From Ruminococcus sp. (lineage in GTDB: Bacteria; Bacillota; Clostridia; Oscillospirales; Ruminococcaceae): a DNA stretch of 47,377 nucleotides. This document shows positions 23,712 through 45,665 of the stretch, in pieces; position 1 is the first letter of the stretch, and each line of letters begins with the position of its first letter. A program made the position numbers and the translations under genes. The stretch is from NCBI RefSeq assembly GCF_017549005.1, contig NZ_JAFYYT010000014.1, positions 1-47,377 on the forward strand. The letters are read 5' to 3'. Below the pieces are notes generated by a model. It saw only the letters and a list, made by a program, of their open reading frames with translations. It did no database searches and was not told where the DNA came from.

Positions 23712-24923
23712 TTATTTGAAAAGTATTATCAGGAACTGTTCAACAAGAACTACGGAAATAAGTGCTACAGGGTATGTTGCTGCATAAGCAGAAGCAACAT
23801 TTTCAGTGCCTGCTGTGCTTATAAGCGTTCCGAGAGCGGGTGTTGAAGTCATACCGCCTGTAATAGAGCCGAGATTGTTAAGAAGGCTGAGTTTGAGTAC
23901 ATATTTTGCGAAAAGATAGCCGATTACCATAGGTAGAATTGTGAGAATTATTCCATATATAAAGTATACGGCGTCAAAATACTGTACAAACTTTGCTCCG
24001 CCAGAAACACCTGCACCAATAAGGAAGAACATGAGTCCGAGTTCGCGGAATACCTTGAGGGTGGAGTCTTTGGGAGTTACGGAAAACTTGCCGAAATGTC
24101 CGAAGTGACCGAATATAAGCGAAACAAGTAGACAGCCGCCTGTTGTTGAAAGTGAAAAATTCCCGAATTTGAATGAACCGATGATAATACCGAAAAATGC
24201 TGCAAGAGCAAACGGCATTATTCCGAAGCTGTCCATTTCTATAAGCTTTGCCGCTTTTTTTTCTTTTCCGTCGCTCTTTGATGCAGGAATAAGGAGGGCT
24301 CTCTCTTTTTCCATATTAGCTTTTGAGAGCTTCGGGATTATCTGAACAAAAAGTACAACACCTATAACTCCGAATATGTACGCGATAGCATATCCGACTG
24401 AAACTATGCTCTGGAGATGATCTGTTCCCACAGCGTCCTTTGCTGCCGAGAAACCGGGGGTACTTGTAAGAGCTCCCGAGAGTATGCCGGAAAGCATTGC
24501 GGTGAATTCCTCACTTGTAAGGTCTGTGAAGTTTCTGCCTATAAGTACGCAGCCTGCACAGACAAGTCCTGCGCTGAAAATAATGATAACAGCAAGAAGA
24601 ACGTAGGATTTGAAATTTTTTTTGAAATTTCCGAAGAAATTGGGGCCTGCAATAAAACCTACTGCCGTAACGAACAGTATAAGACCGAGGTTATCCACTA
24701 TTTTCAGAGCGGATCCAACGAAATCGGTATTTATCTCGCTTGAAAGCTGCTTGTAGAAGATACAGCCGTATAAAAGCGAGATAATGAATACGCCTGCAGT
24801 ACCGAGAGATATACCCTTTATGGTAATTCTTCCGAGTACGTATCCGAGGGCTGCAATCGCAATTACGGAGATCATAAGGAATGAAACACCATGAATTGAA
24901 AGTATTCCATTAAATAATTCCAT
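23712..24923 (-). CDS. AAE-family (AspT/YidE/SucE-like) transporter without RCK domains
   Basis: A 403-residue membrane protein made of two homologous halves, each with about five helices. The duplicated family motif is visible in both: GALTSTPGFSAAK (~149-161) and GGMTSTPALG (~357-366). Classical members (AspT, YidE, YbjL) have two TrkA-C/RCK domains between the halves and are ~550 residues; here only a short charged linker (~205-225) remains. The family includes aspartate:alanine exchangers and the succinate exporter SucE of Corynebacterium. Position directly downstream of the fumarate reductase operon, same strand, makes dicarboxylate (succinate) export the best guess. The ribosome binding site is weak (AAGTGAT). 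Confidence 0.75.
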   Translation of the reverse strand: MELFNGILSIHGVSFLMISVIAIAALGYVLGRITIKGISLGTAGVFIISLLYGCIFYKQLSSEINTDFVGSALKIVDNLGLILFVTAVGFIAGPNFFGNFKKNFKSYVLLAVIIIFSAGLVCAGCVLIGRNFTDLTSEEFTAMLSGILSGALTSTPGFSAAKDAVGTDHLQSIVSVGYAIAYIFGVIGVVLFVQIIPKLSKANMEKERALLIPASKSDGKEKKAAKLIEMDSFGIMPFALAAFFGIIIGSFKFGNFSLSTTGGCLLVSLIFGHFGHFGKFSVTPKDSTLKVFRELGLMFFLIGAGVSGGAKFVQYFDAVYFIYGIILTILPMVIGYLFAKYVLKLSLLNNLGSITGGMTSTPALGTLISTAGTENVASAYAATYPVALISVVLVEQFLIILFK

Positions 24924-24990: not shown

Positions 24991-26592
24991 TTATTTCTTT
25001 CTTGCATAGTGCGGAAGGAGCATAGGTGAAGCTATTCCGCTTGCGGCACCTGCCGCTTCGAGTTCCTTGTTGAAATTCTCGATATGAGCAAGTGTGAGCT
25101 TTTCAGGAGAAGCTGTTTCCTTAGCCTTTGCAGCTGCATATATTCCTGCGTTTCTGCCGAATACGATAACATCGAGGAGCGAGTTGCCCATGAGTCGGTT
25201 TCTGCCGTGTATACCGCCTGCTACCTCGCCTGCAGCATAGAGGTTCTCAACGCCTGTAGCGCAGTCGTCGGATATCTCAAGACCGCCGTTCTGATAGTGG
25301 AGTGTGGGGTATACGAGGATAGGCTCCTTGCGGATATCAATGCCGTATTTGCCAAACATTCTCATCATGGCAGGGATACGCTTTTCGATAGTTCCTTCAC
25401 CGTTCTTGTACTCTATCATAGGCGTATCAAGCCATACAGCCTTTCCGAGCGAGGTCTCGATGCCCTTGTTACGCTCTGTGCATTCGCGTATTATGGAAGC
25501 TGCTGTAACATCACGGGTCTCAAGTGGGTGCATGAAGACGTCACCGTCGATATTTACGAGCTTTGCGCCGAGTGAACGCACCTTTTCGGTAACGAGAGCT
25601 CCGAATATCTGCTCGGGATAGCCTGTGCCTGTAGGGTGATACTGCAAGGTGTCAGCATAGAGAAGCTTTGCGCCTACTCTGTAGCCGAGAATGAGTCCGT
25701 CGGCAGTTGCACCGTAATGGTTTGAGGTCGGGAAGCCCTGATAGTGAAGTCGACCTGCACCGCCTGTTGCGATGATAACTGTTTTTGCCTTTGCAACAAG
25801 GAGCTCCTTTGTTTCCATGTTCATGAGAACAGCACCTGCTGCCCTGCCGTTTTCGTCAAGGATTATTTCGATTGCAGCTGTGAAATCAACTACCGGGATA
25901 CCTCTGTTGATGACTTCGTCGCGGAGAGTCCTCATTATCTCAGCGCCTGAGTAGTCCTTTGCTGCGTGCATTCTCTTGCGTGAAGTTCCGCCGCCGTGAG
26001 TTGTTACCATAGTTCCGTCGGGTTCCTTGTCGAACTCAACGCCAAGCTTATTGAGCCACTGTATAGCCTCGGGAGCTTTTGTTACAAGTTTTTTTACAAG
26101 CTCGGGCTTTGCTGCGAAATGTCCTCCGCCGAAAGCGTCGAGGAAATGTATGGCAGGAGAATCATTGGGTTTGTCGGCAGCCTGGATACCGCCCTCAGCC
26201 ATCATTGTATTTGCGTCGCCGATACGGAGCTTTGTTACGATCATTGCCTTTACGCCTACCTCGTCTGCCTCTATTGCAGCAGAAGCACCTGCGCCGCCTC
26301 CTCCGATTATAAGTACGTCTGTCTCGTAATCGGGTGCAGTAAGGTCTACGTCGTCAGCGCTGATACGGCTCTTTCCCTGGAGAAGCTCTGCAAGCTGAGT
26401 AGGGACTTTGTCTCCTTTATTAACGCCTGCGGAGAGAACAGTAAATTCTTCCTGCTTATAGTCGGGGTGAAAATGTGCAAGAAGCTCGTCCTTTTCCTCT
26501 GCCGTCATTCTTCTCGGTTCAAGAGCGGCATTATCGGCTCTTTTTTCGGCAACTATCTTTGCAAGTTCATTGAGTTTTTCTATCTTATACAT
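24991..26592 (-). CDS. Fumarate reductase/succinate dehydrogenase flavoprotein subunit (TfrA-like)
   Basis: A 533-residue soluble FAD subunit, likely catalysing fumarate reduction to succinate. The dinucleotide fold is TDVLIIGGGGAGASAAIEA (~90-108). The covalent-FAD/substrate region HGGGTSRKRMH lies at ~195-205, the substrate-binding QYHPTGTGYPEQ at ~317-328, and HYQNGGLEI (~433-441) carries the active-site histidine and glycines; an arginine in GIDIRKEP and RNRLMGNSLLD (~466-476) complete the site. About 85 N-terminal residues precede the FAD domain, longer than in most homologues. AGGGGAG supplies the ribosome binding site. It is followed in the operon by the AAE transporter and preceded by its iron-sulfur partner; no membrane anchor genes are present. 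Confidence 0.9.
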   Translation of the reverse strand: MYKIEKLNELAKIVAEKRADNAALEPRRMTAEEKDELLAHFHPDYKQEEFTVLSAGVNKGDKVPTQLAELLQGKSRISADDVDLTAPDYETDVLIIGGGGAGASAAIEADEVGVKAMIVTKLRIGDANTMMAEGGIQAADKPNDSPAIHFLDAFGGGHFAAKPELVKKLVTKAPEAIQWLNKLGVEFDKEPDGTMVTTHGGGTSRKRMHAAKDYSGAEIMRTLRDEVINRGIPVVDFTAAIEIILDENGRAAGAVLMNMETKELLVAKAKTVIIATGGAGRLHYQGFPTSNHYGATADGLILGYRVGAKLLYADTLQYHPTGTGYPEQIFGALVTEKVRSLGAKLVNIDGDVFMHPLETRDVTAASIIRECTERNKGIETSLGKAVWLDTPMIEYKNGEGTIEKRIPAMMRMFGKYGIDIRKEPILVYPTLHYQNGGLEISDDCATGVENLYAAGEVAGGIHGRNRLMGNSLLDVIVFGRNAGIYAAAKAKETASPEKLTLAHIENFNKELEAAGAASGIASPMLLPHYARKK

Positions 26593-26604
26593 ATTCTCCC
26601 CTCC

Positions 26605-27288
26605 TTACTTCTCGATCTCGCGATGGTTGTACATATCTTTTATCTCGTCGATGTTGTTAACAGCCTTTGTCATGAGCTCTTCGATCTGCTTGTCAAAGAT
26701 ACCTTCGTTAACTTCGTTTACACGGTCGGAAAGATGACCACATTCGGGTTCTATGTATTTACCGTTGAGACGTCTTGCAAGCATAGCTACCTGTGGGTGG
26801 GAAATGCCTGCTGGACATCGTGATGAACATACTCCGCACATTACGCAGTCAAAGCTCTCCTCGGCACATTTCGCGTATTCGCCTCTCTGTGCATATGCGA
26901 TATACTGCATAACGTTGAGCTCCTGGGTACAGGCCTTTGTACAGGCGTTGCAGCCTATACAGCTGTATATCTCGGGATAAAGCTGCATCATTATCTGCTG
27001 ATCGGGCTTTATATCTTCGATATTGTATACCCTTTTTTCAAGTGGGAAGAAAGGAAGAGTTGCTATGTACATACCCTCCTGTATCTCAGTCTGACAGGCA
27101 AGACAGCCGTGAAGCTCTATCTCTCCTTTTATTCTGTATATCGTAGCGCAGGCACCGCAGAAACCGTTGCGGCAGCCGCAGCCTCTGACAAGCTCATAGC
27201 CTGCATATTCCATAGCAGTCATTATTGTAAGACCTGCCGGCACCTGATATTTCTTGCCGAACAGGTAAACATTCAACATATTTTCCAT
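26605..27288 (-). CDS. Fumarate reductase iron-sulfur subunit (TfrB N-terminal-like)
   Basis: A 227-residue FrdB/SdhB-type subunit. The N-terminal ferredoxin fold binds [2Fe-2S] through CGCRNGFCGAC (~36-46) and CLACQ (~58-62). Two 4Fe-4S motifs follow: CIGCNACTKACTQELN (~112-127) and CVMCGVCSSRCPAG (~147-160). The methanogen thiol:fumarate reductase TfrB continues into an HdrB-like cysteine-rich domain; this protein stops before it, and that domain is instead encoded as separate hdrB at the head of the operon. AGGAGAAA places the ATG at 27288. It passes electrons to the flavoprotein encoded 12 bp downstream. Confidence 0.9.
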   Translation of the reverse strand: MENMLNVYLFGKKYQVPAGLTIMTAMEYAGYELVRGCGCRNGFCGACATIYRIKGEIELHGCLACQTEIQEGMYIATLPFFPLEKRVYNIEDIKPDQQIMMQLYPEIYSCIGCNACTKACTQELNVMQYIAYAQRGEYAKCAEESFDCVMCGVCSSRCPAGISHPQVAMLARRLNGKYIEPECGHLSDRVNEVNEGIFDKQIEELMTKAVNNIDEIKDMYNHREIEK

Positions 27289-27303
27289 GCAAGTTTCTCC
27301 TTT

Positions 27304-28131
27304 TTAATATTCATCAGGCAGTTCGCCAAGCTGATCGAAACGGAAAACAGGACCGTCTTTGCATACGTATTTATTACCGATATTGCAGCGTCCGCACTTA
27401 CCTACTCCGCATTTCATGCGAAGTTCCATGGTAGTATAGACCTGAGTCTCCTTGAAGCCGAGCTCTTTAAGTCCTGCAAGGGTGAATTTTATCATTATCG
27501 GCGGTCCACAGATGAGGACTGTCTTGTTTATGGAAGGATCGAGCTCCTTGACATAGTTGGGAACAAATCCTACATGACCGTCCCAGCCCTCCTGAGGATT
27601 ATCAATAGTTAGATTGACTTCGATACCGTCGTCGTTCATCCATTCGTCTATTATCTCCTGATAATCCACGAGGTCGTCCTTTGAACGCGAACCGTAGATC
27701 ACCTGTACGTCGCCGTAGTTGGAGCGGTTATCGCGGACATAGTTTATTACCGAGCGAAGCGGTGCAAGTCCGATTCCTCCAGCGATGAAGAGGAGATCCT
27801 TGCCTTTGAGTTCTGTTTCAACTGGGAAAGCGTTGCCGTAAGGTCCGCGTATAGTTATCTGCTGACCTACGTCCATAGCGTGGAGCCATGTTGTGAGACA
27901 GCCGCATTTTTTTATGCTGAATTCCATGAACTCCCTGTTTGTAGGCGAGGAGGTTATGGAAAACATAGCCTCACCCACTCCCGGTATGGACAGCATTGCA
28001 CACTGTCCTGGCATATGCTCGAAAACCTTGCCGCCCTCGGGCGAAACTACCCTGAAAGTCTTGACATCAGGAGTATCCTGCCTTATATCGGTAACTACTC
28101 CGATGTAAGGTATCAATGTATCATTATTCAT
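27304..28131 (-). CDS. flxA: FlxA-like FAD/NAD(P)H-binding electron-transfer subunit
   Basis: A 275-residue ferredoxin-NADP reductase-type protein of the family that includes sulfhydrogenase gamma, AsrB and PyrK. The FAD part has FSITSSPTNREFMEFSIK (~54-71), the pyridine-nucleotide part has FIAGGIGLAPLRSVI (~115-129) and ICGPPIMIKF (~217-226), and the C-terminus binds [2Fe-2S] through MKCGVGKCGRCNIGNKYVCK (~248-267). It should take electrons from NADH (or NADPH). The ATG at 28131 overlaps the previous stop as TAATG and has GGAGGTAAAG; the longer open frame to 28197 is inside the previous gene. In Desulfovibrio, FlxABCD feeds NADH electrons to HdrABC; the gene order here matches. Confidence 0.85.
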   Translation of the reverse strand: MNNDTLIPYIGVVTDIRQDTPDVKTFRVVSPEGGKVFEHMPGQCAMLSIPGVGEAMFSITSSPTNREFMEFSIKKCGCLTTWLHAMDVGQQITIRGPYGNAFPVETELKGKDLLFIAGGIGLAPLRSVINYVRDNRSNYGDVQVIYGSRSKDDLVDYQEIIDEWMNDDGIEVNLTIDNPQEGWDGHVGFVPNYVKELDPSINKTVLICGPPIMIKFTLAGLKELGFKETQVYTTMELRMKCGVGKCGRCNIGNKYVCKDGPVFRFDQLGELPDEY

Positions 28132-29150
28132 TACTTTACCTCCAGCGCTTTCATTACCTTGACGATATTCATGGATATGGGACATTTTGCAAGACATCTT
28201 CCGCAGCCTACACAGCCGAATTCGCCGTTATTGTTTGCAGGGAAATACACCAGCTTGTGCATGAATCTCTGACGGAAGCGTTCAAGCTGAGTAAGTCTTG
28301 GGTTTCCATGTGCCATTTTGGTGAAATCAGAGTACATACATGAGTCCCAGCAGCGGAAACGTTTTATGCCGTGGCCTGTATTGAAGTCCTTTATGTCATA
28401 GCACTGACAGGTTGGGCAGACAAAGGTACAGGTGCCGCAGCCGAGACAGCTCTCTGAAAGCTCGCCCCACTTGTCGGAGTTAAAGTACTCATTGAGCTTG
28501 TCTCCGCCGAAATTATCGGTAGTAAGTTTCGCAAGAGGAAGCTTTTTAAGTATCTCTCTTGTTTTTGCACGAACTTCTTCAAGTTTGGAAGTATCGCCAT
28601 CTTTAAGGAGAGAAGCAATGGAATCAATGAACTGCTGTCCTTTTTCATTGTGTGCTTCTATGAACAGGCTCTCGCCGTCGCTGTAGCAGGCGGCGTCACC
28701 CTCGGGAGCAGCTGCATCTATGCCGAATGTACCGCAGAAGCAGGTCTCGGCAGGGCGTGTACACGCCATAGCAACAACAGTTCCGTGGTCGCGGCGGTTC
28801 TTGTAGTAGCTGTCCACAGGTTCTGCAAGGAAAACCTTGTCAAGTATGGTGAAGCTTCTTGCGTCGCAGGCGCGGACTCCGAATATGACAAAATCCTCCG
28901 ATTCCTCGCGGACATCAATTACTTCGATATTTTTACCGTCCATTTTGAAGTCCACAAGATTTTCGGTCTGCGGAAAGAAGAAGTCTTTTGCGCTTCTGAC
29001 TGTGTTGAGAGCGCTGCTGAGCTTCATGCCGCTTTCGTATTTTCTGTATTCGGCAGCTCCGTCCTCTCGGTCGGTGGGGATATAGAGAGTTTTTGTAGCT
29101 GAAATGGCTTCAAAAAGCTTATCCAGCTTATCAAGCGATATTTTCAGCAT
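28131..29150 (-). CDS. flxB: FlxB-like [4Fe-4S] dicluster protein
   Basis: A 339-residue iron-sulfur protein of the sulfhydrogenase-beta/AsrA kind. The N-terminal ~200 residues have family motifs VIFGVRACDARSFTILDKVF (~88-107) and CFCGTFG (~137-143). The C-terminus has two 4Fe-4S sets: CLGCGTCTFVCPTCQCYD (~237-254) and CVGCGRCLAKCPIS (~314-327), plus CWDSCMYSDF between them. It probably conducts electrons between the FlxA flavoprotein and the Hdr part. Its stop overlaps the FlxA start (TAATG), and its own start overlaps the FlxC stop in the same way, signs of strict co-expression. No signal peptide; cytosolic. Confidence 0.82.
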   Translation of the reverse strand: MLKISLDKLDKLFEAISATKTLYIPTDREDGAAEYRKYESGMKLSSALNTVRSAKDFFFPQTENLVDFKMDGKNIEVIDVREESEDFVIFGVRACDARSFTILDKVFLAEPVDSYYKNRRDHGTVVAMACTRPAETCFCGTFGIDAAAPEGDAACYSDGESLFIEAHNEKGQQFIDSIASLLKDGDTSKLEEVRAKTREILKKLPLAKLTTDNFGGDKLNEYFNSDKWGELSESCLGCGTCTFVCPTCQCYDIKDFNTGHGIKRFRCWDSCMYSDFTKMAHGNPRLTQLERFRQRFMHKLVYFPANNNGEFGCVGCGRCLAKCPISMNIVKVMKALEVK

Positions 29151-30121
29151 TATTCAACTCCCCTTTCGTGAACGATGTTTGCTTCGCAGTCGTTCTGTTT
29201 GTATTCATTGAGGGGAGCGCGTGATACTGCGTCCTCTCCTGCCTGGTATTCGCCGTAAAATGCGTTTATATCCTTTATGAATTTGCGGTTGAGCAGATGT
29301 AGCGGTATATTCTGAGGGCATACTCTCGAACATTCGCCGCAGTCGGTACACCTTCCCGCAACGTGGAAGGCACGGATAATATGGAACATATTCTCTTCAA
29401 AGCTGTCGGCAGGAGCCTTGTTCTCAATGCCTGAATCCGGATTGTCGAATACGCACTTTTCACAGGTGCAGGCAGGACAGACGTTGCGGCAGGCATTGCA
29501 GCGTATGCACTTTGAGAGCTGCTCTCTCCAGAAATCGTAACGCTCCTGAGCAGTCATATTTTCCAGCTTTTCCACCATGTCGAAGCGGTTTGAGTCGAGG
29601 ACATCGCCCTCTTCTCCCATGAGCTCGTCGTATATAACGTGCTTTTTGCTTTTGCATGAAGCGCATTTGTCAAGGACAGCTTCGTAGAACGGCATGGACT
29701 CCTCGCCGTAGACTGTCTCTATTTTCAGAGTGTAATTTTCGTTTTTGACGCTGAGTATTCCCGTAATTCCCTTTGCTTTTATCTTCTCGGCGTCGAGCTT
29801 CGGACCGCCTGGGATACCTACGATATATACGTTTTCGCGAACGACTCTGTGCTCTTTTACGAGCTGATTGAAGCTGTATGTGTCGCAGGGCTTGAGGAAG
29901 GCAAGAACCTTACCATCCTTTCTGCTCTCTTTTACAAGATATTTAGAAACATTTGCAGCTGTAAAATCATCGTATACAAAGCTCTCATCGAGTTCCTCTG
30001 CGCTTGTGAATACAGCAGGGGTGATATCGTAAGCGAACTCTCCCCTCTTCCAGCCGATGACGCGATCAACGACGCCGTCAGCCAAAAGCTGTTTTGCTTT
30101 ATTTATCATTGCTTCCTGCAT
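29150..30121 (-). CDS. flxC: FlxC-like iron-sulfur protein
   Basis: A 323-residue protein distantly like FlxB and FrhB-type subunits. The N-terminal half has VLAFLKPCDTYSFNQLVKEH (~73-92) and a CASCKSKK cluster motif (~153-160). The C-terminal half has a ferredoxin-like pair CIRCNACRNVCPACTCEKC (~210-228) and CTDCGECSRVCPQNI (~260-274). GGAGGATCTAAG precedes the ATG at 30121, which lies inside the flxD end (16-bp overlap). It is assigned FlxC from its place between flxD and flxB and its cluster motifs. The two FlxB/FlxC paralogues likely form the electron conduit from NADH to HdrA. Confidence 0.78.
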   Translation of the reverse strand: MQEAMINKAKQLLADGVVDRVIGWKRGEFAYDITPAVFTSAEELDESFVYDDFTAANVSKYLVKESRKDGKVLAFLKPCDTYSFNQLVKEHRVVRENVYIVGIPGGPKLDAEKIKAKGITGILSVKNENYTLKIETVYGEESMPFYEAVLDKCASCKSKKHVIYDELMGEEGDVLDSNRFDMVEKLENMTAQERYDFWREQLSKCIRCNACRNVCPACTCEKCVFDNPDSGIENKAPADSFEENMFHIIRAFHVAGRCTDCGECSRVCPQNIPLHLLNRKFIKDINAFYGEYQAGEDAVSRAPLNEYKQNDCEANIVHERGVE

Positions 30122-30552
30122 CTTAGATCCTCCAATCTGCGGTTGGGACCGAGTTTTTTGACAGCTTCCGTAAACTCGTTCATGGTCGCTGCGAACTTAG
30201 CTCCCTCAGCTGCCGATACCCATTCTACCCTTGTTCTGTCGCGCTCTATACCAAGGAAATCCAGCATACTGAAAAGCAGGGTCATTCTTCTTCTTGTGAA
30301 GTAGTTACCCGAGGTATAGTGACAGTCTCCAGGGTGGCAGCCGCAGAGGATAACTCCGTCAGCGCCGCGCTGGAAAGCTCGGAGTATGAACATAGGGTTT
30401 ACTCTGCATGAGCAGGGAACTCTGATTATCTTTATATTATCGGGATAGTTCAGCCTGTTTGTACCTGCGAGGTCGGCGCCGGCATAAGAGCACCAGTTAC
30501 AGCAGAATGCAACGATTAGAGGCTGAAACTCTTTGTTTTCATTTACTTGCAT
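30106..30552 (-). CDS. flxD: FlxD/MvhD-like electron-transfer subunit
   Basis: A 148-residue MvhD-type protein, the adaptor that delivers electrons to HdrA in methanogen and bacterial Hdr complexes. The cysteine set is FCCNWCSYAGAD (~14-25), VPCSCRVNPMFIL (~44-56) and CGCHPGDCHY (~70-79), which hold a [2Fe-2S] cluster in MvhD. It overlaps hdrA by 10 bp and flxC by 16 bp. GGAGGTGG within the hdrA end supports the start at 30552. Adjacent hdrA makes the assignment secure. Confidence 0.88.
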   Translation of the reverse strand: MQVNENKEFQPLIVAFCCNWCSYAGADLAGTNRLNYPDNIKIIRVPCSCRVNPMFILRAFQRGADGVILCGCHPGDCHYTSGNYFTRRRMTLLFSMLDFLGIERDRTRVEWVSAAEGAKFAATMNEFTEAVKKLGPNRRLEDLRCRKQ

Positions 30553-32534
30553 ATTGCGTCCACCTCCGCTATGATCTGGCTGTTGGAAAATCCGTTAAGG
30601 TCCATTGCTCCCGAAGGACAGGCTACCGTACAAGCGCCGCAGCCCTGACATACAGCAGGGTTAACGCTTGCGACACGGCGTACAGCAATGGTCCTGTCAG
30701 GCATTTTGAACTCCTTGTCTATGTATGTGATAGCGCCGTAAGGACAAACCTTTTCACATGATGAGCAGCCATTGCACATAAGCTCGTCCGAATGAGCAAC
30801 ACATGGATTGCAGGTAATGCTGTTCTTTACGAGAAGAACGATCGCCTTGGCAGCTGCCGCACTTGCCTGTGCGACGGTTTCGGGGATATCCTTTGGTCCC
30901 TGACAAGCTCCCGAGAGGAAGATTCCTGCGGTTGCGCTCTCAACAGGGCGGAGCTTCGGATGAGCCTCTGTGAAGAAGTCGTTGGTATCCATCTGTGTAG
31001 TGAGCATGGTCGCAAGAGGACGGGCTGTCTTGTCGGGCTCGATAGCTGCTGCAAGAACTACCATATCTGCGTCAATATGGAGCTGTTCGTTTGCAAGAAG
31101 ATCGGAAGCCTGAACATCAATCTTTCCGTCCGAGCGAGGAGTTACTTTTCCGACCATTCCCTTTATGTAGTGAACATTGTACTGCTCAACTGCACGGCGG
31201 TAGAACTCGTCGAAGTTCTTGCCGGGAGTACGGACATCTATATAGAATACGTAGACCTCGGTATCAGGGTACTTCTCGCGGATTAGCATAGCGTGCTTGG
31301 CTGTATACATACAGCATATCTTCGAGCAATAGGGCTTGCCCTTGCTGTCGTCACATCTTGAGCCAACGCACTGTACGAAAACTATCTTGTGCGGGTGGGT
31401 CTTGTCAGAAGGACGGAGAAGAGTTCCGCCGTTTGGTCCGGCAGCATTCATCAGTCTTTCAAGCTCCAGCGATGTTACAACGTCGGGGCACTGATTATAT
31501 GCAAATTCGTCGTATTTGTCGAGCTTTATGGGCTCAAATCCCGTAGCTACGACGATAGCACCGTATTGCTGCTCTATTAACCTGTCCTCCTGCTTATAGT
31601 CGATAGCGCCTGCTGAGCAGACTTTTGAGCATACTCCGCATTTGCCTGTTTTCATCATCATGCAGTTGTTCGGGTCGATAGTAGCTACCTTCGGAACAGC
31701 CTGGGCAAACGGGATATATATTGCTGATCTGTTGTCGAATCCCATATTGAACTCGTTGGGGACTTTCTTCATGGGACATTTTTCGGTGCATAATCCGCAG
31801 CCTGTACACTTTGTCTCGTCAACGAAACGTGCCTTTTTCTTTATTGTTACCGTGAAGTTGCCAACAAATCCTTTTACATCGGCTACCTCACTATATGAAT
31901 GGATTGTTATGTGCTCGTTCTGCGAAGCTTCAACCATTTTCGGAGTGAGGATACAAGCGGCGCAGTCAAGCGTCGGGAAGGTCTTGTCGATCTGAGCCAT
32001 TTTACCGCCGATCGTGGGCTTCTTTTCTACTATATCAACATCGAAGCCAGCCTCTGCGATATCAAGAGCGGTCTGTATACCTGCGATACCGCCGCCTATA
32101 ACGAGAGCTCTCTTTACAACGGGGCTCTCCCCTGCTGTGAGCGGAGCATTGAGGTGGACTTTGGCAACAGCAGCTTTTCCGAGAATTATAGCCTTTTCCG
32201 TAGCACTTGCAATATCCTTGTGTATCCATGAACACTGTTCGCGGATATTTGCTATCTCAACAAGGTATGGATTGAGGCCTGCGGAAGCTGCAGCATTTCT
32301 GAATGTATTTTCGTGCATTCTCGGGGAACATGAACATACCACAACTCCTGTAAGCTTATGCTCCTTGATAGCGTTCTTTACAAGGTTCTGACCTGATTCG
32401 GAACACATATACTGGTAATCCTGAGAGACTATGACTCCCGGTTCCCTGCCGAGGGCTTCTGCAACTGCTTTTACATCGACTGTTGCAGCGATATTTGTTC
32501 CGCAGTGACAGACAAATACACCTATTCTCTGCAT
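30543..32534 (-). CDS. hdrA: HdrA-like bifurcating flavoprotein
   Basis: A 663-residue homologue of heterodisulfide reductase subunit A, the FAD protein at which electron bifurcation takes place in methanogens. The N-terminal iron-sulfur part starts IGVFVCHCGTNIA (~4-16) with CSCSPRMHE (~67-75). The thioredoxin-reductase-like domain has ALVIGGGIAGIQTALDIA (~148-165), then KMAQIDKTFPTLDCAACIL (~181-199), the region of an Hdr-specific cluster. A 4Fe-4S motif CTGCGLCTEKC lies at ~240-250, and two more, CNGCSSCEKVCPYG and CQGCGACTVACPSG, at the C-terminus (~586-640), where ferredoxin is expected to be reduced. AAGGGGGA precedes the start. It lies in the order hdrC-hdrA-flxD. Confidence 0.92.
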   Translation of the reverse strand: MQRIGVFVCHCGTNIAATVDVKAVAEALGREPGVIVSQDYQYMCSESGQNLVKNAIKEHKLTGVVVCSCSPRMHENTFRNAAASAGLNPYLVEIANIREQCSWIHKDIASATEKAIILGKAAVAKVHLNAPLTAGESPVVKRALVIGGGIAGIQTALDIAEAGFDVDIVEKKPTIGGKMAQIDKTFPTLDCAACILTPKMVEASQNEHITIHSYSEVADVKGFVGNFTVTIKKKARFVDETKCTGCGLCTEKCPMKKVPNEFNMGFDNRSAIYIPFAQAVPKVATIDPNNCMMMKTGKCGVCSKVCSAGAIDYKQEDRLIEQQYGAIVVATGFEPIKLDKYDEFAYNQCPDVVTSLELERLMNAAGPNGGTLLRPSDKTHPHKIVFVQCVGSRCDDSKGKPYCSKICCMYTAKHAMLIREKYPDTEVYVFYIDVRTPGKNFDEFYRRAVEQYNVHYIKGMVGKVTPRSDGKIDVQASDLLANEQLHIDADMVVLAAAIEPDKTARPLATMLTTQMDTNDFFTEAHPKLRPVESATAGIFLSGACQGPKDIPETVAQASAAAAKAIVLLVKNSITCNPCVAHSDELMCNGCSSCEKVCPYGAITYIDKEFKMPDRTIAVRRVASVNPAVCQGCGACTVACPSGAMDLNGFSNSQIIAEVDAICK

Positions 32535-32547
32535 TTTACTGTCCCCC

Positions 32548-32931
32548 TTACTTTATGTATTTCCTGAATGCTGTGACTATTGCCTGCTGAGGCATATCGT
32601 CGTCAAGCATTCCGGGTATCTGATTCGGGTTTATATGGTTATTTCCCTGCTGACGGATTGCTGCAAGGCGTACTGCTTCAACTACCTTTGCAGGCTCTAC
32701 GTTTCGCGGACACCTGTCAACACAGGCAAAACAGGTCAGGCATTTGTATATGGACTTTGAGTTCATGAGAGTCTCGATATCTCCGCGCTCCACCATATAT
32801 ACGAACTGGTGGGGATGATATTCCATTTCGTCGTAGGACGGGCAGGTTCCCGAACATTTTCCGCAGCGCATACATTTCAGTACATTAACGCCGCTTGAAC
32901 GGAGCACCTGTTCCTTGAGGTTCTTATTCAT
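32548..32931 (-). CDS. hdrC: HdrC-like [4Fe-4S] subunit
   Basis: A 127-residue iron-sulfur protein with two 4Fe-4S sets: CMRCGKCSGTCPSYDEMEY (~20-38) and CLTCFACVDRCPRNVEPAK (~65-83). HdrC relays electrons from HdrA to HdrB. I place the start at ATG 32931, which is 6 bases from the GGGGG at 32938-32942; the alternative ATG at 32937 directly abuts that site. It overlaps the end of hdrB by 8 bp. Size and motifs are typical. Confidence 0.92.
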   Translation of the reverse strand: MNKNLKEQVLRSSGVNVLKCMRCGKCSGTCPSYDEMEYHPHQFVYMVERGDIETLMNSKSIYKCLTCFACVDRCPRNVEPAKVVEAVRLAAIRQQGNNHINPNQIPGMLDDDMPQQAIVTAFRKYIK

Positions 32932-33721
32932 TGTCATCCCCCTTTACTCCGAGAGCTTCTGCGAGTATTTCCGTGAAATAGTAAACAGGAAGTGCGGAAC
33001 CGCCGTTCTTTCTGAGATTGTACATACACAGCGGACAGGCTGTGATCACCATTTCAGCTCCCTGATCCTCTGCCGACTTCATTACACTATTACTCCTTTT
33101 CTGAGCCTGAGCCTTGTCCTCAAGGGCAATATAGCCGCCGCAGCACTCGTTCCTCTGAGCGTAGATAACAGGAGTACCGCCGAGAGCACGTATGAAGTCT
33201 TCGATGATAGTCGGGTTTTCAGGATCGTCCATTGCGAGGGCTTTTGAAGGTCTCAGCAGCAGACAGCCGTAATAAGCAGCAATTTTTTTACCTGTGAGCG
33301 GATTTACCACTTTCTTTGCAAGCTCGTCAAAACCTATAACATCTCTGAGCATTTCAAGGTAATGGTATACCGTGGCTTCGCCGCAGTAGGGCTCGTCAAG
33401 TCCGAGGTAGCTGTTCACCTTTGAAGCCATTTCATCATCGTGTGATATATCGTAATTTGTCTGCTTTATAACGTTATGACAGGCGGAACAGACGGTGATG
33501 AGCGGTCTGCCCGCAGTTTTGGCAGCGTTTAAAGTCCTTACTGCCGAAAGCTTTGTTGCAATCTCGTCCTTTGCGGTCGTATAAGCTCCGCCGCAGCACT
33601 GCCAGTCGGCAGGCTCTTCAAGGCCGATACCGAGAGCTTTTGCGGAAGCTCGGGCGTAAACGTCGAGAGTTTTTGCTTTAGTTCTCAGCGTACAGCCCGG
33701 GTAATAAGTAAAAGTTTCCAT
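32924..33721 (-). CDS. hdrB: HdrB-like CCG-domain subunit
   Basis: A 265-residue protein with two complete CCG modules, the non-cubane [4Fe-4S] sites of heterodisulfide reductase: YYPGC, then WQCCGGAY and VCSACHNV in the first half, and YYGCLLLR, then NECCGGYI and ACPLCMYNL in the second. All expected cysteines are present, so the catalytic chemistry should be intact. In methanogens the substrate is CoM-S-S-CoB; a Ruminococcus-like host has neither thiol, so the acceptor must be another disulfide or a protein such as the fumarate reductase encoded in the same operon. AAAGGAAAA supports the ATG at 33721 over the GTG at 33727. It sits between fumC and hdrC. Confidence 0.9.
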   Translation of the reverse strand: METFTYYPGCTLRTKAKTLDVYARASAKALGIGLEEPADWQCCGGAYTTAKDEIATKLSAVRTLNAAKTAGRPLITVCSACHNVIKQTNYDISHDDEMASKVNSYLGLDEPYCGEATVYHYLEMLRDVIGFDELAKKVVNPLTGKKIAAYYGCLLLRPSKALAMDDPENPTIIEDFIRALGGTPVIYAQRNECCGGYIALEDKAQAQKRSNSVMKSAEDQGAEMVITACPLCMYNLRKNGGSALPVYYFTEILAEALGVKGDDNE

Positions 33722-33745
33722 ACGCACTTTTCCTTTCGTTTTATA

Positions 33746-35122
33746 TCAGACCATTTCTTCCGGGTGGAATACTTCGTCAAATTTTTCGGCTGTGAGGAAT
33801 CCGAGCTCCACACAGGCTTCTTTAAGGGAAATATTGTCCTTAAAGGCTTTCTTGGCAGTCTTTGCGGCATTTTCGTAGCCGATATATGGGTTGAGAGCGG
33901 TTACGAGCATGAGGGAATTATGAAGATTATTGTGCATTTTCTCTTTGTTTGCTCTTATTCCCACTGCACAGTTCCTGTTGAATGATGTTATTGACTCAGC
34001 GAGAAGTCTTGCCGACTGCAGGAAGTTGTAAGCGCATACGGGCATGAATACGTTGAGCTCAAAATTTCCCTGTGATGCAGCCATTCCTACAGTTACGTCA
34101 TTGCCCATGACCTGTACCGCCACCATTGTTACCTGTTCGCACTGTGTTGGATTTACTTTTCCGGGCATTATAGAAGAGCCGGGTTCATTCTCGGGAATGA
34201 ATATCTCCCCGAGACCGTCGCGTGGTCCCGAAGCAAGCCATCTTACGTCGTTGGCGATCTTCATCATATCGGCAGCAAGCGCCTTTAATGCTCCGTGAGC
34301 AAAAACTATTTCGTCCTTAGAAGTGAGAGAGTGGAATTTGTTCGGCGATGAACGGAAGTCCTTACCGGTGAGCTTTCCTACGTTTTCGGCAGCTTTTTCA
34401 GCGAATCCCTTTGGTGCGTTCAGACCTGTGCCGACAGCTGTGCCGCCGAGTGCGAGCTCCTTGAGCTCCTCACAGGCTGCAAGAATCATCTTTTTGTCTT
34501 TTTCGAGCGAAGCTCTCCAGCCGCTTATTTCCTGTGAGAATTTTATTGGAGTTGCGTCCTGCAGATGTGTGCGTCCGCTTTTTACGATACCCTCGTTCTC
34601 AGATTCAAGACGGATAAAGGTTTTTATAAGATCCTTAACGGCAGGTACGACCCTGTCCTCAAGAGCGAGAACGGCTGATATATGCATTGCCGTTGGAAAA
34701 GTATCGTTGGAGGACTGGCTCATATTGATATCATCGTTCGGGTGGAGAAGAGCTTTTCCTGCGATTTCGTTTCCACGGTTGGCGATGACCTCGTTGGTAT
34801 TCATATTCGACTGTGTACCGCTTCCCGTCTGCCATACAACAAGCGGGAAATGCTCATTGAGAGAGCCGCTTATGACCTCGTCGCAGACTTTCATGATGAT
34901 ATCGCACTTTTCTTTGGTCATTTTCTCCGGCTTGATCTCATGATTTGCCATAGCGGCAGCCTTTTTCAGAATACCGAGAGCATGAGTTATCTCGCGGGGC
35001 ATTGTTTCTATACCAACGCCTATAAGGAAATTTTCATGGCTTCTCTCGGTTTGTGCGCCCCAGTACTTGTCTTTGGGCACTCTTACCTCTCCCATTGAAT
35101 CATGTTCGATACGGTAATCCAT
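33746..35122 (-). CDS. fumC: Fumarase, class II
   Basis: Reversible hydration of fumarate to malate; in this operon it probably runs toward fumarate, supplying the reductase. 458 residues. The signature SSIMPGKVNPTQCEQ lies at ~316-330, and the substrate sites TGSGTQSNMN (~97-106), SSNDTFPTAMH (~138-148) and GRTHLQDATP (~184-193) are all present. The first ATG in the frame (35158) has no ribosome binding site; ATG 35122 follows GGGAGTGG and gives the usual start MDYRIEHDSMGEV. It is the first gene of the long minus-strand operon that continues into hdrB (24-bp gap). An oxygen-stable class II enzyme. Confidence 0.95.
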   Translation of the reverse strand: MDYRIEHDSMGEVRVPKDKYWGAQTERSHENFLIGVGIETMPREITHALGILKKAAAMANHEIKPEKMTKEKCDIIMKVCDEVISGSLNEHFPLVVWQTGSGTQSNMNTNEVIANRGNEIAGKALLHPNDDINMSQSSNDTFPTAMHISAVLALEDRVVPAVKDLIKTFIRLESENEGIVKSGRTHLQDATPIKFSQEISGWRASLEKDKKMILAACEELKELALGGTAVGTGLNAPKGFAEKAAENVGKLTGKDFRSSPNKFHSLTSKDEIVFAHGALKALAADMMKIANDVRWLASGPRDGLGEIFIPENEPGSSIMPGKVNPTQCEQVTMVAVQVMGNDVTVGMAASQGNFELNVFMPVCAYNFLQSARLLAESITSFNRNCAVGIRANKEKMHNNLHNSLMLVTALNPYIGYENAAKTAKKAFKDNISLKEACVELGFLTAEKFDEVFHPEEMV

Positions 35123-35264
35123 TTTAATATCCACTCCCAGACAGATTTGTCGGAGCAAGTGTACATATCGACACTTTCTCCCTTATTTCAAACGTATACA
35201 TTATAAGTATAACAGTATCTTGCGATTATTTCAAATTCAGTTTAAGAATATTGCTATTCAGATA

Positions 35265-35282
35265 TTGATATCTAATTAACAA
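35265..35282. promoter_or_regulatory. Rex-operator-like site upstream of the fumC-hdr-flx-frd operon
   Basis: TTGATATCTAATTAACAA matches the Rex consensus TTGTTAA-N4-TTAACAA at 12 of 14 defined positions, with a perfect right half. It lies upstream of the fumC operon start region and downstream of rex itself. Rex releases DNA when NADH/NAD+ rises, which would induce an NADH-consuming operon. Confidence 0.55.
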
Positions 35283-35644: not shown

Positions 35645-36286
35645 TTACTTATTGTTTTCAAGATTGTTCAGACCGTAGGATAGCGTTGTAAGGCTGTCTC
35701 CGAGGTGAACGTTCTCAACAGCCACGCCTTTGTGTAAGACCTTGAGGTCGTAGTGCGTGAAGTTCCAGAAAGCTTTGATGCCACACCCGATAAGTGTATC
35801 CACAAGCTTTTCGGCAGATGACATTGGAACGCAGAGTATAGCGGCGACAGGCTTGTTTTCTGCACAGAATGTTCCTACCTCTTCAATGCTTCTGACCTGC
35901 AGTCCGCCGAGATCCTTGCCGATTATATCAGGATTTACATCAAATGCACCTATGAGGTCGAATCCCTTGTTGTGGAAATCTATATGGGTCGCTATAGCTT
36001 TTCCCAGATTTCCTGCACCGAGAAGGATCATCGGAGTAAGAGTATCAAGTCCGAGTATCTTTCCTATCTCGAAGCGGAGGTCGGTTACGTTATAACCGTA
36101 GCCCTGCTGGCCGAACTCACCGAAGCAGTTGAAATCCTGACGTATCTGTGAAGCTGTAAGCCCCATTTTTTCCGAAAGTTCGCGTGACGAAATGCGTATG
36201 TAGCCATTGTGTTCAAGCTCGCCGAGAAAGCGATAATATCGCGGGAGCCTTCTTATTACTGAATTGGATATTGAGCTCTTTGACAT
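35645..36286 (-). CDS. rex: Redox-sensing transcriptional repressor Rex
   Basis: A 213-residue homodimeric sensor of the NADH/NAD+ ratio. The N-terminal winged helix includes RRLPRYYRFLGELEHNGY (~12-29) and MGLTASQIRQDFNCFGEFG (~41-59), the DNA-binding helices. The C-terminal Rossmann fold has LLGAGNLGKAIATH (~88-101) and ends with the domain-swapped helix. AGGCATATC with GAGAAGG lies upstream of the start. It is the last gene of an acn-X-icd-rex run (21 bp after icd). Its likely target is the operator beyond its own terminator, in front of fumC. Complete. Confidence 0.96.
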   Translation of the reverse strand: MSKSSISNSVIRRLPRYYRFLGELEHNGYIRISSRELSEKMGLTASQIRQDFNCFGEFGQQGYGYNVTDLRFEIGKILGLDTLTPMILLGAGNLGKAIATHIDFHNKGFDLIGAFDVNPDIIGKDLGGLQVRSIEEVGTFCAENKPVAAILCVPMSSAEKLVDTLIGCGIKAFWNFTHYDLKVLHKGVAVENVHLGDSLTTLSYGLNNLENNK

Positions 36287-36307
36287 TACGATATGCCTTC
36301 TCTCTTA

Positions 36308-37519
36308 TTACATTAATTTGTCGAGTCTGATCTTTATTTCGTCAAGGAATGTTTTTGAATCTACCTTGCGCTTATTATCGAGCTTGGAGATAAGGTAGAG
36401 GTCGCCTGTCATGATACCGTCCTCAATAGTCTGGATAGTTGCCTTTTCAAGCTTGTCGGCAAAGTCGCAGAGTTCCTGTGTGCCGTCAAGCTCTCCCCTC
36501 TTGCGGAGGGCTCCGCTCCATGCGAAGATGGTAGCAACAGAGTTTGTTGAGGTCTCCTCACCCTTGAGGTATTTGTAGTAGTGGCGCTGTACTGTTCCGT
36601 GAGCTGCTTCATACTCATAGATACCGTCGGGAGACACGAGTACAGAGGTCATCATAGCGAGACTTCCATAAGCGGTTGACACCATGTCTGACATAACATC
36701 ACCGTCATAGTTCTTGCAAGCCCATATGTAGCCTCCGTTTGAACGGATAACTCTTGCTACTGCGTCGTCTATTAGAGTGTAGAAATACTCTATGCCTGCG
36801 GCTTCGTACTTTTCCTTGTATTCTTTATCGAATATCTCCTGGAAGATGTCCTTGAAGCGGTGGTCGTACTTCTTTGAGATGGTATCCTTTGAAGCAAACC
36901 ATACGTCCTGTTTGAGGTCGAGACCGTAGTTGAGACAAGCTCTTGCGAAGCCTGCAATAGAAGCGTCAAGGTTGTGAAGTCCCTGGATAATACCGTCACA
37001 TTTTGTAAAATCGTGGATAAGCTCGCGTGTTTCGTTGCCGTTTTCGTCTGTTACAACGAGTTCAGCCTTGCTGCCCTTGCTTACGCGCATTTCTGTGTTC
37101 TTGTAAACATCGCCGTATGCATGACGGGCAATGGTTATCGGCTTTGTCCATGTGGGGATATAAGGCTCGATGCCCTTTACTATGATAGGAGTACGGAAAA
37201 CGGTTCCGTCAAGGGCTGCACGGATAGTGCCGTTTGGAGACTTCCACATCTGGGTGAGGTTGTACTCGGGCATTCTTGCAGCGTTCGGAGTGATCGTAGC
37301 GCACTTTACAGCTACGCCGTACTTCTTTGTAGCTTCTGCTGAATCTATGGTCACCTGATCCTTGGTCTCTTCTCTGTGCTTGAGACCGAGGTCGTAGTAT
37401 TCAGTGTTGAGCTCTACATATGGTTCAAGGAGAGTTTCCTTTATCCACTGCCAGAGGATCCTTGTCATCTCGTCGCCGTCCATTTCAACGAGCGGCGTTT
37501 TCATGGTGATTTTTGCCAT
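36308..37519 (-). CDS. icd: NADP-dependent isocitrate dehydrogenase
   Basis: Oxidative decarboxylation of isocitrate to 2-oxoglutarate, giving NADPH and the carbon skeleton for glutamate. 403 residues, beginning [18 protein letters not shown], the N-terminus of the eukaryote-like homodimeric NADP-IDH subfamily. Typical stretches include [14 protein letters not shown] (~73-86), [20 protein letters not shown] (~93-112), [20 protein letters not shown] (~268-287) and [17 protein letters not shown] (~304-320). GGAGGTATGAACC sets the ATG at 37519; the frame open to 37684 lies partly inside the upstream gene. It lies in one operon with aconitase. No citrate synthase is seen in the window. Confidence 0.95.
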
Positions 37520-37547
37520 TGGTTCATACCTCCGTAAATAAAGTTCA

Positions 37548-37930
37548 TTAAGCCTCTGAGCGGCTGAGTAATTCGATAAGTGCCAGTGCTCCGCAGAAAA
37601 GGAGCATGAGTATGACGTTTCTGACAACAGCGGGCGCAAATGATATCTTGTCGAAAGATACGCTTTTATATGTTCCCACAGCAAGGGCGCACAGTCCGCC
37701 TATAACTAAATAGGCCGCGCCGTGAAGACCTATCATTCTTGTCAGAGCAAGTCCTACGATAAAGCCTATAAACTGCGGAAGAAGAGCGACAAGCCAGCCG
37801 CCGAGATACTCCCCTGCGCGCTGACGGGGATTGAGAGGGATAATCCCCTCTCCCTTCTGTCTGCCTTTGTCCTTCGATTGCTGTCATTTACGTCTGTTAC
37901 GATATCATTGAATATTTCTTTTATATCCAT
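37548..37930 (-). pseudogene. Frameshifted small membrane-protein gene
   Basis: An ATG at 37930 with AAGGAAC upstream begins MDIKEIFNDIVTDVNDSNRR, which reads on only to a TAG. The frame that ends at 37548 encodes the natural continuation: NPRQRAGEYLGGWLVALLPQ, then FIGFIVGLALTRMIGLHGAA and two further hydrophobic helices ending [10 protein letters not shown]. The two frames must be joined by a -1 shift (or one missing base) in the purine-rich stretch around 37834-37870. Together they would give a ~125-residue protein with about three to four membrane helices, function unknown. It sits between acn and icd with short gaps. It could be a true pseudogene, a sequencing error in a G-run, or a separately started shorter protein (ATG 37736, 62 aa). 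Confidence 0.65.
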
Positions 37931-37954
37931 AGTTCCTTGCAATAAATGCGGTCA

Positions 37955-39930: not shown

Positions 39931-39959
39931 ATTTTACAACATTTCTGTCAGTTTGTCAA
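39931..39959 (-). promoter_or_regulatory. Promoter of the aconitase operon
   Basis: On the minus strand TTGACA (39959-39954) and TAAAAT (39936-39931) are 17 bp apart. Confidence 0.7.
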
Positions 39960-40009
39960 GAATTAAACAAAGTATTTTTTATATGTAAATTTTATGCTTT
40001 TATAATGAA

Positions 40010-45490: not shown

Positions 45491-45536
45491 AAACTCCTCC
45501 TTATCAACGGCATTGCTGCCGTTTATTTGTTTATAC

Positions 45537-45565
45537 ATTATAACATAATAAGGCAAATAAGTCAA
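45537..45565 (-). promoter_or_regulatory. Promoter of the UDP-sugar pyrophosphorylase gene
   Basis: On the minus strand TTGACT (45565-45560) and TATAAT (45542-45537) are 17 bp apart. Confidence 0.8.
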
Positions 45566-45620
45566 TGTACAAAGCGCTGAATATTTCATATGAGCGAGTA
45601 ACATATCATTATCTGAATCC

Positions 45621-45665
45621 AAAAGAAAAACGCCTGAATATTGGTATAGACCTTTATTCAAGCGT
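45621..45665 (-). terminator. Terminator behind the tRNA-Leu remnant
   Basis: On the minus strand ACGCTTGAATA (45665-45655) pairs with TATTCAGGCGT (45640-45630), one G-T pair, and a T-run follows. It lies 12 bp beyond the tRNA 3' end, where a tRNA gene terminator is expected. Confidence 0.75.

What the first reader, a model, noticed from the sequence alone, without database searches (positions are those of the whole stretch)
24991..35122. Candidate electron-bifurcating NADH:ferredoxin/fumarate reductase (FumC-HdrBCA-FlxDCBA-FrdBA) operon
Ten consecutive minus-strand genes with overlaps or very short gaps encode fumarase, HdrB, HdrC, HdrA, four Flx-like proteins, and the two soluble fumarate reductase subunits. 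HdrABC-FlxABCD in Desulfovibrio is known to link NADH to ferredoxin and a disulfide, and HdrA is a flavin bifurcation site in methanogens. Here the only acceptor in the operon is fumarate reductase, and no membrane anchor is encoded. I infer a soluble complex that uses the favourable NADH-to-fumarate reaction to drive ferredoxin reduction. That would give succinate-forming ruminococci energy conservation without a membrane fumarate reductase. I am not aware of a described FlxABCD-HdrABC-fumarate reductase complex, but I could not search.
Basis: partly seen in the sequence, partly recalled or inferred. Interest (0 to 1): 0.92.

Follow-up and report, generated by a model that had tools for sequence, protein, structure and literature searches.

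The report
Hdr-Flx-linked soluble fumarate reductase operon
A ruminococcus carries a compact operon that probably lets it make succinate from fumarate with NADH while also charging ferredoxin, a way to save energy without a membrane fumarate reductase; the idea has been proposed before for a relative but not proven.

Summary
Confirmed: ten minus-strand genes, no gap over 18 nt, encode FumC-HdrB-HdrC-HdrA-FlxD-FlxC-FlxB-FlxA-FrdB-FrdA. The nine genes HdrB to FrdA keep this order in 78 of 78 non-duplicate loci with enough upstream sequence, R. flavefaciens FD-1 included. FrdA keeps the active-site residues of fumarate reductase, but Asn replaces the covalent-FAD His (145 of 145); FrdB has two [4Fe-4S] motifs and no [3Fe-4S] site (138 of 138). 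The genome shows no Sdh_cyt anchor and no MenD over cut-off; RnfC and an [FeFe]-hydrogenase are present. In more distant relatives FrdAB lies with Hdr in three separate tree branches, with three Hdr-Flx gene orders, and elsewhere beside cytochromes or malic enzyme.

I add the modular FrdAB family, the altered cofactor sites and a likely HdrB-FrdB route.

The parts
33746..35122 (-). FumC, class II fumarate hydratase (malate to fumarate)
   Evidence: TIGR00979 702.8 bits, over the 664.75 cut-off
32924..33727 (-). HdrB-like subunit with two CCG motifs (C12,44,45,80,83 and C155,195,196,231,234)
   Evidence: PF02754; nine of the ten Cys in 94 of 94 and C12 in 93 of 94 (one gap) aligned Frd-linked HdrBs
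32548..32937 (-). HdrC-like subunit, two [4Fe-4S] motifs
   Evidence: TIGR03290 69 bits, cut-off 160 not reached; 8 Cys kept in 93 of 93
30543..32534 (-). HdrA, full-length flavin-bifurcation subunit
   Evidence: 705 bits to solved HdrA 5odc over residues 3-660, K409 of 5odc aligned with K413; K413 kept in 97 of 97
30106..30552 (-). FlxD / MvhD / FlpD, linker between Flx and HdrA
   Evidence: PF02662 188 bits; the only FlpD match in the genome
29150..30121 (-). FlxC, iron-sulfur protein
   Evidence: Fer4_8/Fer4_9 domains; named by its place in the conserved cluster
28131..29150 (-). FlxB, iron-sulfur protein related to sulfhydrogenase beta / AsrA
27304..28131 (-). FlxA, FAD/NAD(P)H-binding electron-input subunit (the ORF can also start at 28197)
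   Evidence: PF00175, PF00970, PF10418
26605..27288 (-). FrdB, [2Fe-2S] plus two [4Fe-4S] motifs, no [3Fe-4S] site
24991..26592 (-). FrdA, flavoprotein with fumarate reductase active-site residues, Asn in place of the covalent-FAD His
   Evidence: PF00890; H319,T335,E336,R360,H432,R466 align with H233,T245,E246,R288,H356,R391 of E. coli FrdA, N128 with H45
23712..24923 (-). AspT/YidE/YbjL-type antiporter, candidate C4-dicarboxylate (succinate) exporter
   Evidence: TIGR01625 150.6 bits; next recognised gene after FrdA in 71 of 89 loci tested
35206..35282 (-). putative control region: promoter-like site 35234-35206 and Rex-operator-like site 35265-35282
   Evidence: suggestive only (promoter-like sites are no more frequent than in shuffles)
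35645..36286 (-). Rex redox-sensing repressor, next gene upstream (possible regulator, not part of the complex)
   Evidence: NF003990 276.9 bits, over the 233 cut-off

Best explanation
The operon encodes a cytoplasmic, quinone-independent NADH:ferredoxin/fumarate oxidoreductase. NADH is oxidised at FlxA; electrons pass through FlxB/FlxC and FlxD to the FAD of HdrA, where pairs are split. One branch goes through HdrA's ferredoxin-like clusters to ferredoxin. The other goes HdrC - HdrB - FrdB - FrdA and reduces fumarate, supplied by FumC, to succinate, which the antiporter may export. Expected sum: 2 NADH + Fd(ox) + fumarate -> 2 NAD+ + Fd(red) + succinate. From NAD -320 mV and fumarate +33 mV the high-potential half releases about 68 kJ/mol, more than the roughly 19-35 kJ/mol needed for ferredoxin. 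Reduced ferredoxin would feed Rnf or the [FeFe]-hydrogenase. Shown here: genes, order, cofactor ligands of HdrA, HdrB, HdrC, FrdA and FrdB, conservation, no Sdh_cyt anchor in the assembly. Inferred: the physical complex, the HdrB-to-FrdB hand-over, bifurcation, direction, export.
For: Ten genes, no gap over 18 nt; nine-gene order kept in 78 of 78 non-duplicate loci, without inserted genes. FrdAB sits with Hdr in three separate branches of the FrdA tree, and three Hdr-Flx gene orders occur (3 changes of the label, 0% of 200 bootstrap trees with one Hdr group). In three loci FrdAB adjoins HdrB and HdrC with no HdrA in the stretch held (L120, L121, L126), which points to HdrBC-FrdB as the contact. 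The TfrB model matches FrdB, HdrC and HdrB in three successive parts (profile 19-92, 131-220, 415-465; E 4e-9 to 1e-7, so weak; FlxC also hits the middle part). The dicluster domain of the FrdB model matches HdrC best, with CODH/ACS and RnfC close behind. HdrA keeps K413 in 97 of 97 and most cluster cysteines. Genome: one FlpD, no Sdh_cyt, MenD below cut-off, RnfC and [FeFe]-hydrogenase over cut-off. FrdA genomes carry FlpD in 35 of 39 against 121 of 359 others. Published transcriptome: about 4-fold induction of the similar operon at low CO2, not significant for every subunit (passages).
Against: No biochemistry: neither complex formation nor fumarate-dependent ferredoxin reduction is shown here or in text I saw. 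Among the 40 distant FrdA, 18 have no Hdr in the stretch held (7 none of the genes looked for except fumarase-free neighbours, 6 fumarase/malic enzyme, 5 membrane partners), so FrdAB does not need adjacent Hdr. HdrB keeps the cysteines of both CCG motifs, so disulfide reduction is not excluded. In HdrA, C67 is Ala or Gly in 15 of 97. FlxB and FlxC ligands were not checked. The active-site residues counted in FrdA are shared by the wider SdhA/FrdA/NadB family (recalled), so they do not prove the substrate. The assembly is 94% complete, so an anchor could be missing. The futalosine menaquinone route and FrdC/FrdD families were not searched. The FlpD co-occurrence test is not corrected for phylogeny.
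Confidence: 0.67

Rival explanations
1. Two-step thiol route: Flx-Hdr bifurcates to ferredoxin and to a disulfide carrier at HdrB, and FrdAB separately oxidises the thiol, like the thiol:fumarate reductase of methanogens, without a stable Hdr-Frd complex.
For: HdrB keeps the cysteines of both CCG motifs; FrdA's best NCBIfam model is TfrA, 345.6 bits; Hdr/flox of Desulfovibrio is proposed to use a disulfide such as DsrC (passages).
Against: No thiol carrier gene was recognised among the ten genes. FrdB lacks the HdrB-like part of TfrB (227 aa against a 488-position profile). FrdA is far below the TfrA cut-off of 718 bits.
Confidence: 0.15
2. FrdAB works on its own with another donor (reduced ferredoxin, flavodoxin or a NADH dehydrogenase) and shares the operon with Flx-Hdr only for regulation.
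For: FrdAB of the same family occurs beside fumarase/malic enzyme, a cytochrome b561-ferredoxin protein or FMN/NapC-type proteins without Hdr in the stretch held. A Blautia luti study models a NADH-dependent fumarate reductase encoded by frdAB with no mention of Hdr or Flx (passages); whether that FrdAB is of this family was not tested.
Against: 78 of 78 strict order conservation and three Hdr-Flx-Frd gene orders. All six genomes with the fumarase/malic enzyme arrangement carry FlpD on another contig, so Hdr may serve them too.
Confidence: 0.13
3. The complex runs in reverse: succinate oxidation together with reduced ferredoxin yields NADH (confurcation).
For: Some relatives place FrdAB with SucC-like genes, malic enzyme or MmgE/PrpD, which suggests oxidative use there.
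Against: The covalent-FAD His is Asn in 145 of 145; in E. coli FrdA, loss of that His spares fumarate reduction but abolishes succinate oxidation (recalled, Blaut et al. 1989). The window operon opens with fumarase and is followed by an exporter-like gene.
Confidence: 0.05

Closest known systems
'Succinate operon' of Pseudoclostridium thermosuccinogenes (PMC7282089; cites Koendjbiharie and van Kranenburg 2019 preprint)
   Same: Fumarate hydratase, seven-gene Flx-Hdr complex, two-gene fumarate reductase and a putative succinate transporter in consecutive locus tags; the same proposed function (passages).
   Different: Another genus, and thermophilic. I could not read the preprint and did not compare sequences, so subunit order and identity are untested.
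HdrABC-FlxABCD (Hdr/flox) of Desulfovibrio
   Same: The same seven Hdr and Flx subunits; NADH input and ferredoxin output proposed.
   Different: There the acceptor is proposed to be a disulfide such as DsrC, and the operon as given (Dde_1207:Dde_1213) spans seven tags, which leaves no room for Frd (passages).
Thiol:fumarate reductase TfrAB of methanogens (biology recalled)
   Same: FrdA's best NCBIfam model is TfrA; FrdB, HdrC and HdrB weakly match successive parts of TfrB.
   Different: FrdB is not fused to an HdrB domain; scores lie far below the equivalog cut-offs; electrons would come from NADH, not CoM/CoB thiols.
Quinol:fumarate reductase FrdABCD (E. coli K-12)
   Same: FrdA catalytic residues, 34% identity (143 of 426 aligned positions); the [2Fe-2S] cysteines and the first 4Fe-4S motif of FrdB.
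   Different: No FrdC/FrdD in the operon, no covalent-FAD His, no [3Fe-4S] site.
MetFV-HdrABC-MvhD of Moorella (recalled)
   Same: Hdr complex docked on a dedicated soluble reductase.
   Different: The acceptor is methylene-tetrahydrofolate, not fumarate. Not compared here.

Membership tests
HdrABC-FlxABCD NADH dehydrogenase/heterodisulfide reductase | Seven genes hdrBCA and flxDCBA clustered | tested here: met
HdrABC-FlxABCD NADH dehydrogenase/heterodisulfide reductase | Full-length HdrA with bifurcation FAD site and ferredoxin-like cluster domain | tested here: met
   Aligned over 3-660 with 5odc_A; K413 97/97; the eight C-terminal cluster cysteines 97/97 except C597 96/97
HdrABC-FlxABCD NADH dehydrogenase/heterodisulfide reductase | NADH-dependent bifurcating ferredoxin reduction | not testable with these tools
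   needs an enzyme assay
P. thermosuccinogenes-type succinate operon | fumarase + Flx-Hdr (7) + fumarate reductase (2) + transporter in one run | tested here: met
   gene content of the window against the operon description (passages)
P. thermosuccinogenes-type succinate operon | Orthologous sequence and the same subunit order | not tested
   that genome was not fetched; the preprint is not held
Quinol:fumarate reductase | Membrane anchor gene (FrdC/FrdD or SdhC) with frdAB | tested here: not met
   none in the operon; PF01127 absent from the assembly (94% complete; PF02300/PF02313 not searched)
Quinol:fumarate reductase | [3Fe-4S] cluster in FrdB | tested here: not met
   the V208 position is Cys in 138/138
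Quinol:fumarate reductase | Covalent FAD His | tested here: not met
   Asn in 145/145
Quinol:fumarate reductase | Menaquinone synthesis | tested here: inconclusive
   MenD only below cut-off (66.8 vs 244.2 bits); futalosine route not searched
Thiol:fumarate reductase TfrAB | TfrA above curated cut-off | tested here: not met
   345.6 vs 718 bits
Thiol:fumarate reductase TfrAB | TfrB fused to HdrB-like domain | tested here: not met
   FrdB is 227 aa; HdrB is a separate gene
L-aspartate oxidase NadB | NadB equivalog score | tested here: not met
   272.2 vs 452.75 bits; a second homologue, 36% identical, lies at G000:C14 and was not scored against NadB

The most novel reading that the evidence does not exclude
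FrdAB is a stand-alone, quinone-free fumarate reductase module (a split TfrAB) of Bacillota that plugs into exchangeable electron inputs: Hdr-Flx (three gene orders), HdrBC alone, HdrABC plus a giant HdrA-like flavoprotein with FlxD, a cytochrome b561-ferredoxin protein, FMN/NapC-type proteins, or fumarase/malic enzyme sets. Coupling to Hdr-Flx would then define a widespread class of electron-bifurcating fumarate reductases in gut and other anaerobes, with HdrB handing electrons directly to FrdB.
Probability: 0.45. Interest if true: 0.8.

Novelty: new member of a known kind. Interest (0 to 1): 0.55.

Why it matters
How succinate-forming clostridia and ruminococci without a membrane fumarate reductase gain energy from fumarate reduction is poorly explained. 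If this complex bifurcates, each succinate would also yield reduced ferredoxin for Rnf or H2, which changes ATP and hydrogen budgets for rumen and gut fibre degraders. It would also give a bacterial Hdr-Flx complex a definite acceptor, fumarate, where acceptors have so far been proposed rather than shown.

Tried and rejected
Rejected: canonical membrane fumarate reductase (no anchor gene, no 3Fe-4S site, no covalent-FAD His); L-aspartate oxidase; methanogen-type TfrAB (below cut-offs, FrdB not fused); chance neighbourhood (78 of 78 order).

Selection and rows dropped: the 80 named loci are the best 80 of 560 confirmed relatives, found with peptide patterns one of which (GDANTMM) contains the Asn at the FAD-His position, so they are biased to close kin and to that Asn; the 68 unique FrdA found by whole-protein or profile searches (28 close, 40 distant) also all have Asn. 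From I fetched 20 places with flanks. I fetched 27 of 39 non-window places and 13 of the 15 (the other two were already held). FrdA under 480 aa, FrdB under 200 aa and identical proteins were dropped before residue counts (151 to 145, 148 to 138). The 54-row tree leaves out L115, L123, L134, L138 (long or lone FrdA); with them and an E. coli outgroup the Hdr label needs 4 changes instead of 3. Type I rows over 84% identical, and type I rows with cut-off contexts, were thinned before both trees. Three FrdA loci have no FrdB nearby (L115, L134, L138).

Literature: PMC7282089, PMC5861303, PMC12773636, PMC9044749, PMC9888536, PMC13014828, PMC4215793 and PMC10542786 were seen as find passages only; other titles only in search listings. 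None that I saw reports biochemical proof. Most subscription journals and preprints are not in that library.
Full report
Observation. The minus strand from 35122 to 24991 encodes FumC, HdrB, HdrC, HdrA, FlxD, FlxC, FlxB, FlxA, FrdB and FrdA (families). Neighbouring genes overlap by up to 16 nt or are at most 18 nt apart; an AspT/YidE-type antiporter follows after 67 nt. Upstream on the same strand lie Rex, NADP-isocitrate dehydrogenase and aconitase. A promoter-like site (35234-35206) and a Rex-operator-like site (35265-35282, 2 mismatches to a recalled consensus) precede FumC. This is suggestive only.

Conservation of the operon. I examined 100 loci with close FrdA homologues: 20 unnamed relatives and 80 named genome contigs (the best 80 of 560 confirmed). 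81 have at least 7.3 kb upstream of FrdA, and in all 81 the matches run HdrB-HdrC-HdrA-FlxD-FlxC-FlxB-FlxA-FrdB-FrdA; they span 8.66-9.30 kb with no space over 251 nt between neighbouring matches. After merging three pairs of identical FrdA genes it is 78 of 78. FumC precedes it in 73 of 76, and the antiporter is the next recognised gene downstream in 71 of 89. One locus is R. flavefaciens FD-1 (L041); the other records are titled as MAGs, uncultured or Candidatus. Among 59 same-genus genomes, 51 have a FrdA match at E below 1e-120 (counted from the listing).

Parts. HdrA aligns end to end with the solved methanogen subunit 5odc_A, with K409 of 5odc at K413; that this lysine lies at the bifurcating FAD is recalled. 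K413 is kept in 97 of 97, and most cluster cysteines are invariant or nearly so: the eight of the C-terminal ferredoxin-like domain are 97 of 97 except C597 (96); C67 near the N-terminus is replaced in 15 of 97. This is what a ferredoxin-reducing branch needs. HdrB keeps the cysteines of both CCG motifs and HdrC its eight. FlxB and FlxC ligands were not examined. FrdA aligns with E. coli K-12 FrdA at 143 identical of 426 positions. H233, T245, E246, R288, H356 and R391 correspond to H319, T335, E336, R360, H432 and R466, while the covalent-FAD His45 corresponds to Asn128. H319, E336, R360, H432, R466 and Asn128 are invariant in 145 of 145 unique family members; T335 is Thr in 143 of the 144 other than the window, Ser in one. 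One search pattern for the named loci contained Asn128, but the 68 members found by whole-protein or profile search all have it too. FrdB has four [2Fe-2S] and eight [4Fe-4S] cysteines in 138 of 138; Val208 of E. coli FrdB, at the [3Fe-4S] site, aligns with Cys151. The enzyme thus lacks the cluster that faces the quinone in membrane fumarate reductases. That loss of the FAD His spares fumarate reduction but not succinate oxidation in E. coli is recalled literature.

A modular FrdAB family. A1, an alignment of 12 FrdA, found the family at E <= 1e-100 in 39 of 398 genomes drawn from the phylum and in 13 of 154 of one class (two of these 13 are among the 39). I fetched 40 distant loci and some extensions. 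Contexts of 145 unique FrdA: Hdr-Flx 83, probably Hdr-Flx but cut off 29, Hdr-Flx in another order 3, HdrABC with another input 5, HdrBC only 3, class I fumarase with malic enzyme 6, cytochrome b561-ferredoxin protein 3, FMN/Fer4 protein 2 (one with NapC/c7-type cytochromes), none 7, cut off 4. Of the 40 distant ones, 22 have Hdr or Flx nearby and 18 do not. Labels rest on Pfam scans of representatives and BLAST for the rest. Hdr-Flx occurs in three orders: HdrB-C-A-FlxDCBA-FrdBA (window type), HdrC-B-A-FlxDCBA-FrdBA (L117, L136 and similar) and FrdBA-HdrB-C-A-FlxDCBA (L122/L154, L128/L155, L150/L156). On a 54-row tree the Hdr label needs 3 changes, and in 0% of 200 bootstrap trees is it one group. 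With four further long or lone rows and an E. coli outgroup it needs 4. Either the link was made repeatedly, or it is old and was lost repeatedly; the tree cannot tell.

Genome setting. The window's assembly (94% complete, 2% contamination) has one FlpD match, the window's, no Sdh_cyt anchor, MenD only far below cut-off, RnfC over cut-off and one [FeFe]-hydrogenase over cut-off. Across the phylum sample FlpD is present in 35 of 39 genomes with this FrdA against 121 of 359 without (Fisher p 7e-12, not corrected for descent; 14 of 16 families). All six genomes with the fumarase/malic enzyme arrangement also carry FlpD on another contig.

Function. The best reading is a soluble NADH:ferredoxin/fumarate oxidoreductase. 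The driving force from NADH (-320 mV) to fumarate (+33 mV; both values in PMC5861303, passages) is about 68 kJ per mol. Reducing ferredoxin at -420 to -500 mV (recalled) costs 19-35 kJ. Ferredoxin could be reoxidised by Rnf for ion pumping, or by hydrogenase. Complex formation, bifurcation and direction are not shown.

Prior art. Passages of PMC7282089 describe a 'succinate operon' in P. thermosuccinogenes: fumarate hydratase, a Flx-Hdr bifurcation complex over seven locus tags, fumarate reductase over two, and a possible succinate transporter. It is induced about 4-fold at low CO2, not significantly for all subunits. [quoted passage not shown] Searches for related work showed no biochemical test in what I saw. 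The central idea is therefore already known. The ruminococcal operon is a further, very well conserved member; the cofactor changes, the split-TfrB likeness and the modular contexts I did not see described, but the preprint could not be read.

Verdict. Interest 0.55; the modular reading would deserve 0.8 if true.

Noticed in passing
window 10927-12009: Aspartate carbamoyltransferase fused to the C-terminal metal-binding domain of the PyrI regulatory chain (PF02748), a PyrB-PyrI fusion.
   Followed up: no
window 35645-39892: Rex, NADP-isocitrate dehydrogenase and aconitase lie directly upstream on the same strand; a Rex-like site also lies at 39953-39970, upstream of aconitase.
   Followed up: partly
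other genomes of the phylum sample: Many listed FlpD/MvhD genes carry one in-frame TGA, perhaps selenocysteine; the window's FlxD does not.
   Followed up: no
L147:7416-10628, L140:7615-12354, L119:7398-11867: Giant HdrA-like ORFs (1070-1579 aa), found to carry Pyr_redox_2 and several ferredoxin domains in L147, between HdrABC and FrdAB, with FlxD: perhaps another electron input to the same fumarate reductase.
   Followed up: partly
L115, L134, L138: FrdA paralogues without a nearby FrdB, in genomes that carry a second FrdA place.
   Followed up: no
L081 and L107: MAG contigs labelled Treponema and Bacteroidaceae carry the clostridial operon at 75-79% FrdA identity; misbinning or transfer.
   Followed up: no
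window 44261-45661: UDPGP-family uridylyltransferase-like protein without an NCBIfam match at E <= 0.001.
   Followed up: no
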